Notes under the pieces: generated by a model
What the model saw: the letters and a program-made list of their open reading frames with translations, nothing else
What the model was told of the DNA's origin: nothing
The model's database searches: none
Assembly: GCA_030633305.1 (NCBI GenBank)
Contig: DAOVTB010000006.1
Coordinates: 1 to 58,485, forward strand
Reading direction: 5' to 3'
Length of the DNA: 58,485 bases
Source of the DNA: Candidatus Muiribacteriota bacterium
Lineage (GTDB): Bacteria; Muiribacteriota; DAOVTB01
Shown here: in pieces, positions 2,884 to 31,324 of the stretch
Position numbering within the stretch: position 1 is the stretch's first letter
Layout of the letters: each line of letters begins with the position of its first letter
Position numbers and translations under genes: made by a program

Positions 2884-4224
2884 ATGAATAAAAAAATCTA
2901 TATATTATCAATAGTTATTTTTGTTTTTATATCCTGTTCTGCTTTTACAGATCAATATCAACTTGATATGAAATATAAAGTAAAAGAACTTCTGAGAGCT
3001 GGAAAGAAATATCATCTGATCCTTCTAGGGAAATCCGCAGTCAAATATCTTGTTAATTCAATTAAATTCAGTGGAACCATGACGAGGATTACTGCAGTAA
3101 GTGCACTTGGTGGGATCAAGGATGAAAGTGCTTTATACATACTTGAGGAATTGATTGAAAGAATACAGAAAAAAAAGAAAACTGTTTTTGTTGAAGAAAA
3201 ACTTCTTATATTATCGGCTGAAGCACTTTTGAATTGTGGATCTCATGATGGTATGAAAATTCTCATGAATAAATTAAAAGATACAGATTCAAGAGTTGTA
3301 GAACAAAGTGTAGCAGCTCTTTCGCGAGTTGGTGGCTTAGGATCTGTAAAAAAAATTATTGATGTAATAAAACGACAGAATCCAAAGATCAAAAATCTTT
3401 TCTCAGCACTGAAATTGATGTATCACAGGCATAAACCGGCCTGGCAAAAAAATGATAAATTGATTAAATATGTGCGGAAAATTATTTTACGATGTATAAA
3501 ATCCAATATTGCTGAATACAGGTTTTCAGCGGTTTGGCTCGCTGGCGAGCTGAATGAACGAAAATTGATTCCTTATTTGAAAAAGCTGTTAAATGATTCA
3601 GATTCCCAGGTGAAAAATCAATCAGCACATTCTCTTTGTTTTCTTGGTGATAAAAGTGGATTAGATATTGTTTTAAAAGATTTGGATGGTACAGGAGAAT
3701 TTTCAGATGATACCAAGAAAAAATCTCTTAGAAGGGACGCTGCACGTTGTTTACGAAATATTCGTCGAAAAGGGATTGCAAAAAATCTGGTTAAAGTATT
3801 GGATGATGAGGATGATGTGTTGGTAAACAATGCTATTTTTTCTATCTATATGATAGGGGATACATCAGTTTTAGGAACTCTTGAAAATATTTTAAAAAGG
3901 ACTGGAAATAATTCAGAACGTAAAAATTTACTGAAAAAAACAATTAAAGCATTCAAGCTTCAGAATTCTTATATCCACCCTGGTGTGGAAGATAAAAATG
4001 TAGAGAAAATTACTATAAAAGCCAGGAATATTGAAGTATGGCGATTATTCCGTATGATAAATAAAATTACGGGAAAACGTATAGTGCTTAATCCTGGTGT
4101 GGAAGGAACCCTTACATATAGTGCTCGTGATAAACATTATCTGGATGTTATTAGGCAGATTGCCGGGAAAATGAATTTCAGGGTAAAAGAAACAAAGAAT
4201 ATGATTGAGATATTTAAAAAATAA
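2884..4224 (+). CDS. Exported HEAT-repeat protein with C-terminal secretin-type (STN/N0-like) module
   Basis: The 446-residue protein starts with a hydrophobic signal segment ending IFVFISC, so a lipoprotein cysteine near residue 18 is possible although the lipobox is loose. Residues about 40-360 are alpha-helical repeats of HEAT type (for example SRVVEQSVAALSRVGG and DSQVKNQSAHSLCFLGD). The last 75 residues are different: KITIKARNIEVWRLFRMINK, then a GKRIVLNPGVEGTLTY strand and a final NFRVKETKNMIEIF. This matches the layout of the small alpha/beta N0/STN domains of secretins and TonB receptors. Family knowledge would put it in the periplasm as a scaffold; its partner is unknown. It may be co-transcribed with the kinase upstream. 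Confidence 0.75.
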   Translation: MNKKIYILSIVIFVFISCSAFTDQYQLDMKYKVKELLRAGKKYHLILLGKSAVKYLVNSIKFSGTMTRITAVSALGGIKDESALYILEELIERIQKKKKTVFVEEKLLILSAEALLNCGSHDGMKILMNKLKDTDSRVVEQSVAALSRVGGLGSVKKIIDVIKRQNPKIKNLFSALKLMYHRHKPAWQKNDKLIKYVRKIILRCIKSNIAEYRFSAVWLAGELNERKLIPYLKKLLNDSDSQVKNQSAHSLCFLGDKSGLDIVLKDLDGTGEFSDDTKKKSLRRDAARCLRNIRRKGIAKNLVKVLDDEDDVLVNNAIFSIYMIGDTSVLGTLENILKRTGNNSERKNLLKKTIKAFKLQNSYIHPGVEDKNVEKITIKARNIEVWRLFRMINKITGKRIVLNPGVEGTLTYSARDKHYLDVIRQIAGKMNFRVKETKNMIEIFKK

Positions 4225-28904: not shown

Positions 28905-29954
28905 ATGAAAAAAGTAATTTATTACGGGAAAGTCCCCATAGGCGGGAATAATAAAGTAACAGTACAATCTATGACAAATACATTGACTAGAGATCATGTA
29001 CAAACAATAAAACAGATTATTGAACTGGAAGAAGCAGGTTGCGAGATTGTCAGGGTAAGTGTGCCTGATTCAGATTCATTGAAAGCAATTGACAGAATAA
29101 AAAGAAAAATCAGTATTCCGCTTGTAGCAGATATTCATTTTAATTATAAGCTTGCTCTTGATGTGCTTGATACCCAGATCGATGCAGTAAGATTGAATCC
29201 TGGAAATTTTCCGAAACAATACCTTAAAAAAGTGGTTTTAAAGGCTGAAAGGAATCAGATACCTATTAGAATCGGTGTAAATAGCGGGTCAATTGATAAG
29301 AAAATTTTGAAAAAATATGGAAATACTCCTGAAGCACTTGTAAAAAGTGCAGTACAATATGTTGATTATTTTGAAAGTAACGGGAATAATAAAATAGTTG
29401 TAAGTGTGAAATCTTCTAATGTTGTTGATACTATTGAAGCATATAGATTGGCTGATAAGAAAATTAAATATCCACTTCATATAGGTGTAACTGAAGCTGG
29501 AACTTATATCCGCGGTGCAATAAAAAGCTCGGTTGCTCTGGGAATTCTTCTAAATGATGGAATTGGTGATACATTGAGGGTTTCACTATCATCCCATCCT
29601 GTTAAAGAAATGGCGATAGCGTATCAGATATTAAAAAGCCTTGGTTTAAGAAAGGGTGGAATCAATATTATATCCTGTCCAACGTGTGCTAGAACTTGTA
29701 TTGATATTATTTCAATAAGCGAAGAAATAGAGTCGAGGTTTGGACAGATTTCAGATGATGTTACGATTGCAGTGATGGGATGTGTTGTAAATGGTCCTGG
29801 TGAAGCCATCCACGCAGATATAGGAATTGCTGGGAATCCAGATGGAACTGGAACTTTGTTTGAAAAAGGAAAAATCATTAAAAAAATTCAAAACCCCAAA
29901 ATAGAGTTTCTGAAAATCCTGGAAAATTTTCTAATTAGTAGAAATTCAAATTGA
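28905..29954 (+). CDS. ispG: 4-hydroxy-3-methylbut-2-enyl diphosphate synthase IspG
   Basis: The 349-residue enzyme is the [4Fe-4S] reductase that opens the cyclodiphosphate in the non-mevalonate pathway. Motifs: YYGKVPIGGNNKVTVQSMTN at the N-terminus, PLVADIHFNYKLA, IISCPTCARTCID with cluster cysteines, and VAVMGCVVNGPGEA-like (AVMGCVVNGPGEAIHAD) with the third cysteine. Length fits the bacterial form without insertion. AAGGA lies ten bases before the ATG. It is followed at once by a small dyad and then a sigma-54 promoter that does not serve it. Confidence 0.94.
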   Translation: MKKVIYYGKVPIGGNNKVTVQSMTNTLTRDHVQTIKQIIELEEAGCEIVRVSVPDSDSLKAIDRIKRKISIPLVADIHFNYKLALDVLDTQIDAVRLNPGNFPKQYLKKVVLKAERNQIPIRIGVNSGSIDKKILKKYGNTPEALVKSAVQYVDYFESNGNNKIVVSVKSSNVVDTIEAYRLADKKIKYPLHIGVTEAGTYIRGAIKSSVALGILLNDGIGDTLRVSLSSHPVKEMAIAYQILKSLGLRKGGINIISCPTCARTCIDIISISEEIESRFGQISDDVTIAVMGCVVNGPGEAIHADIGIAGNPDGTGTLFEKGKIIKKIQNPKIEFLKILENFLISRNSN

Positions 29955-29978
29955 AACTGTCTGAATTATCCGACAGTT
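29955..29978. promoter_or_regulatory. Inverted repeat AACTGTC-N10-GACAGTT, possible enhancer site or 3' hairpin
   Basis: A perfect 7-bp dyad starts right after the ispG stop. It lies about 105 bases upstream of the sigma-54 -24 element, a usual distance for an enhancer-binding-protein site. It lacks a T-run and so is a poor terminator. Which role it has, if any, is inference. Confidence 0.4.
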
Positions 29979-30057
29979 AATTCTAGTGTTATAAAAAATA
30001 ATACATTATAATAATTAAAAAACATTATAAAACCAGTAGTTTTAAACAATTGATATC

Positions 30058-30073
30058 TGGCACGGATATTGCA
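30058..30073 (+). promoter_or_regulatory. Sigma-54 (-24/-12) promoter
   Basis: TGGCACG-GATA-TTGCA matches the full sigma-54 consensus (YTGGCACGN4TTGCW); the GG of -24 (30059-30060) and the GC of -12 (30071-30072) are ten bases apart as required. Expected transcription start is near 30084. No ORF follows on this strand before the terminator at 30198-30226. Confidence 0.8.
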
Positions 30074-30083
30074 ACTACCTTTT

Positions 30084-30226
30084 TGTTAAAACGTAGCAAT
30101 AAACGATACAGTTTTGTAGAATAAGTTGAAGTTTTAAGTTGAAGTTTTGGACGCATTTATTTGTTGTAGAATTAGTTGAAGTATTTAGTCGCAGTAGAAG
30201 GGCTCCCATTGGGAGCCCTTTTTTAT
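30084..30226 (+). ncRNA. Putative sigma-54-dependent small RNA (~140 nt) with AGTTGAAGT repeats
   Basis: The interval from the predicted sigma-54 start to the terminator contains no ATG in any frame. It has a perfect tandem repeat of AAGTTGAAGTTTT (30123-30135 and 30136-30148) and a longer direct repeat GTAGAATAAGTTGAAGTTTT (30116-30135) against GTAGAATTAGTTGAAGTATT (30166-30185), two differences in 20 bases, with a period of 50. It ends in a 10-bp GC-rich hairpin and a T-run. Promoter, lack of coding capacity, internal repeats and terminator together support an RNA gene. The target is unknown. Confidence 0.6.
30198..30226 (+). terminator. Strong intrinsic terminator
   Basis: AAGGGCTCCC (30198-30207), loop ATT, GGGAGCCCTT (30211-30220) followed by TTTT and ATTTCTTT. 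The T-run is on the plus strand only, so it ends plus-strand transcripts (the putative sRNA), 244 bases after ispG. Confidence 0.85.
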
Positions 30227-31302
30227 TTCTTTGCTTTTTTCATAAGGATTAATCCGATTATTATGATAATGACGTTTTGAAACCACATAGCTATAAACGG
30301 AGGTAGAATACTGCCTTTGCCAAGAGCTTTTCCTACAGACATGAGAAGATAGTAAAAAAATATGATCAGAATACTCAAACCAATTCCGATTGATTTTCCA
30401 CTTCTCTGGGTATTGATTGCGAGGGGAACACCTATAAAGATAAAACATAAGGATGCAAAAGGAAGAGAAGTCTTGAAATAAAATTCCATAATCAGGTCTT
30501 TTACATTAATATTGGCTTTTTTTAGTTTTTTGATTTCTGATGATAATTCTCTTAATGACATGTCTGTGGCACGTTTATTAGAATAAGATTTATAATCTCC
30601 GTAACTTCCTGACATATATAATTTCATTTTGGTGAAATCCATTCGGTCAACAGATTTTTCAGTGGGTTCAAAATCCCATTTTATGCCATTGTATATTTCC
30701 CAGTTATTTTCTTTCCATTTGGCATTTTTCGCAATAATTATTGCGGGAAAGCGATTAAATCTTTTCTCAAATATTATGAGGTCTTGAAGGGCATCATTTT
30801 TCTTATCAAATTTTCGTACAAAAAATGTTAGTCCATCCTGACCGCTGAAAAATACATTTTCTCCAATTTTTGGAATTGGTTTTTTGAAAGTTATTTTCCT
30901 GAAAATTTTTCTTCGTAGTACGTTTGTTTTTGGAACGACAAACTCATTAAACATTATTGTAAGCAGTGATATTGTAAGGCCGAATATGAGGGCTATACGG
31001 ATTAATCTGTAATAACTGATTCCGCAGGTTAACATTGCAATAATTTCTTTATCTGCAGATAATTTTCCAAATGTTATTAATCCACCCATAAGAGTTGCCA
31101 TGGGAAATGTAAGGATCAGAATTGAAGGAAGGGAAAAAATAAAGAGTTTAAGTACTTCTACAACGGGTATACCCTTGTTGATAACAAAATCAACAAGTTC
31201 CATCGTTAGATCAACTAGAAATATGGTCGTGAAAATAAATAATCCAAACAGAAATGATCCAATTAAATTTTTATAAATATATCTGTCTATTATTTTCAAC
31301 AT
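30223..31302 (-). CDS. LptF/LptG-family permease (YjgP/YjgQ)
   Basis: About 359 residues with the LptF/G layout: three N-terminal membrane segments (NLIGSFLFGLFIFTTIFLVD, FIFSLPSILILTFPMATLMG, LIFGLTISLLTIMFNEFVVP), a periplasmic beta-jellyroll of about 150 residues, and three C-terminal segments (SLCFIFIGVPLAINTQRSGK onward). It would form the inner-membrane part of the LptB2FG extractor that moves LPS onto the Lpt bridge. Only one such gene is here; its F or G partner must lie elsewhere. The frame is open from a GTG at 31311; the ATG at 31302 is the first after it. A terminator hairpin lies only about 23 bases upstream of the start. Confidence 0.87.
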   Translation of the reverse strand: MLKIIDRYIYKNLIGSFLFGLFIFTTIFLVDLTMELVDFVINKGIPVVEVLKLFIFSLPSILILTFPMATLMGGLITFGKLSADKEIIAMLTCGISYYRLIRIALIFGLTISLLTIMFNEFVVPKTNVLRRKIFRKITFKKPIPKIGENVFFSGQDGLTFFVRKFDKKNDALQDLIIFEKRFNRFPAIIIAKNAKWKENNWEIYNGIKWDFEPTEKSVDRMDFTKMKLYMSGSYGDYKSYSNKRATDMSLRELSSEIKKLKKANINVKDLIMEFYFKTSLPFASLCFIFIGVPLAINTQRSGKSIGIGLSILIIFFYYLLMSVGKALGKGSILPPFIAMWFQNVIIIIIGLILMKKAKK

Positions 31303-31324
31303 TGGTTTCACTGTAATAAAGAAA

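What the first reader, a model, noticed from the sequence alone, without database searches (positions are those of the whole stretch)
30058..30226. Sigma-54 promoter with no ORF: probable sigma-54-dependent small RNA
Seen: a full-consensus -24/-12 element (TGGCACG N4 TTGCA, 10 bases between GG and GC) is followed by about 110 bases without any ATG, containing a perfect tandem 13-mer AAGTTGAAGTTTT and a 20-base direct repeat (two differences) 50 bases apart, then a 10-bp GC-rich hairpin with T-run. Known: the only sigma-54 activator gene in the window (36798) keeps its GAFTGA loop, so sigma-54 is in use. Inference: the AGTTGAAGT copies are repeated pairing or protein-binding sites, as in multi-site regulatory RNAs. 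I know of no described RNA of this kind here.
Basis: partly seen in the sequence, partly recalled or inferred. Interest (0 to 1): 0.85.

Follow-up and report, generated by a model that had tools for sequence, protein, structure and literature searches.

The report
Sigma-54-driven small RNA candidate
Between two housekeeping genes of an uncultured bacterium lies a perfect switchable (sigma-54) promoter that, unlike nearly every other such promoter in that genome, leads into a short, untranslated, repeat-bearing stretch ending in a strong terminator, so it most likely makes a small regulatory RNA whose targets are still unknown.

Summary
At 30058-30073 there is a perfect -24/-12 element (TGGCACGGATATTGCA). 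After it come about 120 nt without ATG or Shine-Dalgarno, holding a 32-nt direct repeat (84% identity, 50-nt spacing, tandem 13-mer inside), then a 12-bp terminator with a T-run.

Genome context makes the promoter credible. The host has RpoN, about 17 sigma-54 activators and Hfq. The element is about 7-fold over-represented (121 sites against 17 in the control). Of 14 exact sites, 11 lie just upstream of a ribosome site and ORF, mostly secreted, envelope or chaperone proteins. Two are intragenic. This one alone leads into a terminator without an ORF. A unique inverted repeat about 100 bp upstream is a candidate activator site.

I therefore support a roughly 143-nt sigma-54-dependent sRNA. No relative was found in 39 genomes of the phylum, phages, plasmids or Rfam, but no genome closer than phylum level was available. 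It belongs to a known kind (CrcZ, NrsZ, Qrr, Pxr) without family membership. Transcription is unproven.

The parts
29955..29978 (.). Inverted repeat AACTGTCTGAATTATCCGACAGTT, centre about 118 bp upstream of the inferred start; candidate activator (bEBP) site, or a 3' hairpin of ispG
   Evidence: unique in the genome at up to 3 mismatches; TGTC-N10-GACA occurs 5 times in about 500 kb of sampled own-genome DNA and 2 of the 5 lie 86-100 bp upstream of a sigma-54 element. Function inferred only.
30058..30073 (+). Sigma-54 (-24/-12) promoter element TGGCACGGATATTGCA
   Evidence: genome-wide position of the same motif
30084..30226 (+). Inferred small RNA, about 143 nt, no ATG, no SD before the terminator
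   Evidence: start inferred from promoter geometry, end from the terminator
30114..30145 (+). Direct repeat copy 1 (TTGTAGAATAAGTTGAAGTTTTAAGTTGAAGT); contains most of the perfect tandem 13-mer 30123-30148
30164..30195 (+). Direct repeat copy 2 (TTGTAGAATTAGTTGAAGTATTTAGTCGCAGT), 84% identical to copy 1
30196..30222 (+). Intrinsic terminator, 12-bp stem with T-run; directional for the + strand

Best explanation
The interval encodes a free-standing, roughly 143-nt non-coding RNA. It is transcribed from about 30084 by RNA polymerase with sigma-54, activated by one of the cell's bacterial enhancer-binding proteins (possibly bound at the inverted repeat 29955-29978), and ends at the terminator 30196-30222. 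It belongs to a sigma-54 regulon that otherwise makes secreted, envelope, pilus and chaperone proteins. Most likely it works as a trans-acting, Hfq-assisted base-pairing sRNA whose weakly structured body carries repeated A/U-rich segments (AGUUGAAGU) able to contact targets at more than one place. Shown: promoter element, repeats, terminator, absence of ORF, presence of RpoN, activator and Hfq genes. Inferred: transcription, activator, Hfq use, base-pairing and targets.
For: The motif TGGCACN5TTGCW with up to 1 mismatch occurs 121 times in the genome against 17 for the reversed-pattern control. Of 14 exact sites, 11 are followed by an SD and start codon about 20-62 nt after the inferred start, 2 are intragenic, and only this one has neither SD nor ORF but a terminator about 120 nt after the element. 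One-mismatch intergenic sites mostly show the same gene-proximal layout, and none of those inspected looks like a terminated orphan. RpoN with its DNA-binding domain is present, as are about 17 activators and Hfq. The neighbours cannot be served by this promoter: ispG ends upstream and lptF/G is on the opposite strand, ending at 30223. The terminator's T-run is on the + strand only. The repeat exceeds all shuffles.
Against: There is no expression data. No homologue was found in 39 phylum genomes, phages, plasmids or viral contigs, and no Rfam family reaches its cut-off, though no genome closer than phylum level was on hand. Predicted pairing to 230 translation-initiation regions is no better than for shuffled RNAs. 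The body without the terminator folds no better than shuffles (z +1.3); the low overall fold z-score (-2.6) comes from the terminator.
Confidence: 0.6

Rival explanations
1. The transcript is real and sigma-54 dependent, but acts as a protein decoy: the repeated AGUUGAAGU/GUAGAAU segments bind an RNA-binding protein, as CrcZ's CA motifs or CsrB-type GGA motifs do.
For: Repeated near-identical short segments in a weakly structured, A/U-rich body; Hfq present, plus a second protein with an Hfq-like domain; pairing tests negative.
Against: No AANAANAA and no ANGGA in the transcript; the copies are not displayed in hairpin loops and copy 1 is predicted to be mostly paired; only three copies of the core.
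Confidence: 0.17
2. The terminator and the interval are the 3' untranslated region of ispG. The sigma-54 element is a chance match, or drives at most a by-product RNA without function.
For: No other convincing terminator lies between ispG (ends 29954) and 30196; 2 of the 14 exact sites are intragenic and probably non-productive; no conservation detected.
Against: An exact TGGCACG-N4-TTGCA site is expected 0.13 times per genome by chance, and the five other exact sites with G at that place all precede an SD+ORF; a 244-nt 3' UTR with a perfect internal promoter would be a coincidence.
Confidence: 0.15
3. The RNA acts locally: it converges on lptF/G and overlaps the 3' end of its message, so that sigma-54-driven transcription or antisense pairing tunes lptF/G expression.
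For: The RNA ends in the hairpin that lies directly after the lptF/G stop codon (30223) on the opposite strand; lptF/G is an envelope gene, in keeping with the regulon's theme.
Against: The terminator stops the RNA at the end of the lptF/G coding region, so overlap is essentially limited to an lptF/G 3' UTR of unknown length; this does not explain the repeats.
Confidence: 0.07
4. The transcript encodes a very short peptide from a non-ATG start (for example TTG at 30139, 37 codons through the terminator).
For: An open frame of 37 codons starts at TTG 30139; two small proteins of 41 and 58 aa do have sigma-54 promoters in this genome.
Against: No SD-like word before the terminator, whereas almost all other sigma-54 genes here have a clear one; the frame runs through and past the terminator.
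Confidence: 0.03

Closest known systems
CrcZ (Pseudomonas; CbrB and RpoN dependent)
   Same: sRNA needing RpoN and an activator with an upstream site; carries several copies of a short motif (PMC3480352)
   Different: CrcZ copies are the AAnAAnAA CA motif; none is present here; no sequence similarity
NrsZ (Pseudomonas; NtrC and RpoN dependent)
   Same: Sigma-54-dependent intergenic sRNA with a short conserved motif that acts on a target (PMC9308961)
   Different: Motif ACAGGCAG absent; NrsZ is at least 226 nt and processed, and lies next to ntrC
Qrr RNAs (Vibrio; LuxO and sigma-54 dependent)
   Same: sRNA whose transcription is switched by an activator at a sigma-54 promoter (PMC10162802)
   Different: No Qrr hit in the permissive Rfam scan; different organism; targets unknown here
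Pxr (Myxococcus xanthus)
   Same: Roughly 100-nt sRNA read from a predicted sigma-54 promoter in an intergenic region (PMC5568312)
   Different: Pxr is predicted to fold into three stable stem-loops and lies next to an activator gene; here the body is weakly structured and the neighbours are ispG and lptF/G

Membership tests
Sigma-54-dependent small RNAs (as a kind) | -24/-12 promoter of consensus type with correct spacing | tested here: met
Sigma-54-dependent small RNAs (as a kind) | Genome encodes RpoN and enhancer-binding activators | tested here: met
Sigma-54-dependent small RNAs (as a kind) | No likely translated ORF, own terminator | tested here: met
Sigma-54-dependent small RNAs (as a kind) | Activator-binding site upstream | tested here: inconclusive
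   Unique inverted repeat at about -118; binding not shown
Sigma-54-dependent small RNAs (as a kind) | Transcript made and dependent on rpoN | not testable with these tools
   needs RNA-seq or 5' RACE
CrcZ | Several AAnAAnAA (CA) motifs | tested here: not met
   none in 30084-30226
NrsZ | Conserved ACAGGCAG motif | tested here: not met
   absent
CsrB/RsmZ-type sponges | Many GGA (ANGGA) motifs in hairpin loops | tested here: not met
   two GGA, no ANGGA; one of them is in the terminator
Qrr, GlmY/GlmZ and other Rfam sRNA families | Match to the family's covariance model | tested here: not met
   no family at its gathering score; most permissive hits span the terminator hairpin
Pxr | Stable multi-stem-loop fold of the body | tested here: not met
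   body without terminator z = +1.3

The most novel reading that the evidence does not exclude
A multi-site regulatory RNA of a kind not yet described, built on repeated AGUUGAAGU segments and switched by sigma-54, that acts by binding a dedicated RNA-binding protein of this lineage (for example the MshEN-Hfq fusion noticed in the same genome) and so ties an envelope and pilus regulon to post-transcriptional control.
Probability: 0.04. Interest if true: 0.75.

Novelty: new member of a known kind. Interest (0 to 1): 0.4.

Why it matters
The sigma-54-dependent sRNAs known to me, and those in the papers read here, come from Proteobacteria and Myxobacteria. If this one is transcribed, it would add a case from a different, uncultured phylum. 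It sits in a large sigma-54 regulon of secreted, pilus and envelope proteins, in line with the proposal that sigma-54 controls the bacterial exterior (PMC3162934). It would suggest that placing an sRNA inside a sigma-54 surface regulon has arisen more than once. Without expression or target data it remains a good candidate rather than a discovery.

Tried and rejected
(1) DNA relatives of 29960-30240 in 57 genomes: only self; four short low-score hits, three to A/T-rich DNA and one to the terminator hairpin. (2) Further copies of the repeat in the genome: no more than the reversed control (85 against 200 at up to 3 mismatches), and no other copy below 2 mismatches. (3) Synteny around ispG in 29 phylum relatives: no exact sigma-54 site within the 1.5-kb flanks; relatives are too distant (42-47% IspG identity) to judge conservation. 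(4) The first combined promoter+repeat pattern was set wrongly and missed the window itself; repeated with correct gaps, only self. (6) Other orphan sigma-54 sites as paralogous sRNAs: the orphan-looking one-mismatch sites inspected either precede an ORF or lack a terminator. (7) Target pairing: negative. (8) Fold of the body: not significant. (9) Rfam with permissive threshold: hits far below the families' cut-offs, most of them spanning the terminator hairpin.

Full report
What is there. The interval 29955-30222 lies between ispG (28905-29954, +, GcpE family) and an lptF/lptG permease gene (30223-31311, -). Reading on the + strand: an inverted repeat AACTGTCTGAATTATCCGACAGTT (29955-29978), an A/T-rich stretch, a perfect sigma-54 element TGGCACG-GATA-TTGCA (30058-30073), about 120 nt without ATG, and a 12-bp terminator hairpin with a T-run (30196-30222). 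Two 32-nt copies of a direct repeat (30114-30145 and 30164-30195, 84% identical) lie inside. The first contains most of a perfect tandem 13-mer (30123-30148). None of 1000 dinucleotide shuffles and none of 1043 segments sampled along the window has a repeat scoring as high.

Is the promoter credible? The genome (G000, 4.64 Mb, 350 contigs) has RpoN with its DNA-binding domain and about 17 sigma-54 activators, apart from weaker AAA+ matches. TGGCACN5TTGCW with up to one mismatch occurs 121 times against 17 for the reversed pattern; exact copies are expected 2.3 times by composition and 14 are present. I took the DNA around the 100 listed sites and classified them. Of the 14 exact sites, 11 are followed by an SD and a start codon 20-62 nt after the inferred start, 2 lie inside genes, and one is the site in question. 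Of the one-mismatch sites, most lie inside genes, as chance matches would. The intergenic ones mostly sit before genes. The downstream genes are largely secreted or surface proteins. They include a VIT/VWA protein, a C39-like peptidase, a type IV pilin-like protein, an Flp pilin-like protein (just below its cut-off), several small secreted proteins, an ABC transporter ATPase, a band-7/vault-like protein and GroES. A motif that in its exact form so regularly precedes genes is a working promoter class, and its perfect copy at 30058 deserves the same reading. It is the only exact intergenic site that leads to a terminator and no ORF.

Is it non-coding? There is no ATG and no SD-like word before the terminator. 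The longest same-strand frame in the body starts at a TTG without SD and runs through the terminator. Nearly all other sigma-54 genes here have a clear SD. The promoter cannot serve a neighbour, since ispG is upstream and lptF/G is on the other strand.

Regulation. The inverted repeat centred about 118 bp upstream of the inferred start is at a usual distance for an activator site (general knowledge), and is unique in the genome. In about 500 kb of sampled own DNA the core TGTC-N10-GACA occurs five times, two of them 86-100 bp upstream of a sigma-54 element: here, and next to a response-regulator-type activator gene on C148. The numbers are small, the sample is enriched for sigma-54 sites, and both repeats lie directly after a stop codon, so a 3' hairpin is not excluded. 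The activator gene in the window (36798) is one of about 17 and there is no evidence that it is the cognate one.

How might it work? The body without the terminator folds no better than shuffles (z +1.3), with copy 1 of AGUUGAAGU mostly paired and the others partly open. Hfq is present and the RNA has an A/U-rich body with a terminator U-run, as Hfq-type sRNAs do (general knowledge). Base-pairing in trans is the commonest mechanism for such RNAs, and I commit to it. However, pairing with 230 translation-initiation regions was no better than for 20 shuffled RNAs, and neither the extended repeat's complement nor exact complements of the repeat words are enriched near starts. That sample covers only about a tenth of the genome. 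The decoy reading lacks any known motif: no AANAANAA, no ANGGA, no ACAGGCAG.

Known relatives. Sigma-54-dependent sRNAs are known: CrcZ (PMC3480352), NrsZ (PMC9308961), Qrr1 (PMC10162802) and Pxr (PMC5568312). They share the promoter type, and some share repeated or conserved short motifs, but none shares sequence with this one, and the tested defining motifs are absent. No Rfam family matches at its cut-off. No DNA relatives were found in phylum genomes, phages, plasmids or viral contigs. The set held no other genome from the same family, so conservation, the most useful missing test, could not be judged.

Verdict. Observation confirmed; the small-RNA reading is probable; the function of the repeats is open. 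New member of a known kind, moderate interest.

Noticed in passing
L265 (G000:C209:9043-11219), minus strand, 989-1897: A 303-aa frame joins a MshEN domain (residues 81-160) to a C-terminal Hfq domain (241-297), both over Pfam cut-off. In the phylum only the MshEN part matched elsewhere among the listed hits. A possible c-di-GMP-linked Hfq-like protein; the eight papers holding both words did not show such a fusion in title or abstract.
   Followed up: partly
L218 (G000:C215:16321-19321), minus strand, 67-1464: A 466-aa band-7/SPFH protein with major-vault-protein shoulder and repeat matches behind a one-mismatch sigma-54 element: a vault-like protein under likely sigma-54 control.
   Followed up: no
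L013 (G000:C173:2424-5439), minus strand, promoter at contig 3924-3939: A GroES (Cpn10) gene lies directly behind an exact sigma-54 element, an unusual control for a chaperonin.
   Followed up: no
Whole genome G000: A large sigma-54 regulon of secreted, pilus and envelope proteins in an uncultured phylum: 121 elements with up to one mismatch against 17 in control.
   Followed up: partly
L198/L252 (G000:C148:4896-8396): TGTC-N10-GACA inverted repeat 86 bp upstream of a sigma-54 element and directly after the stop of a response-regulator-type activator gene, resembling 29955-29978 of the window.
   Followed up: partly
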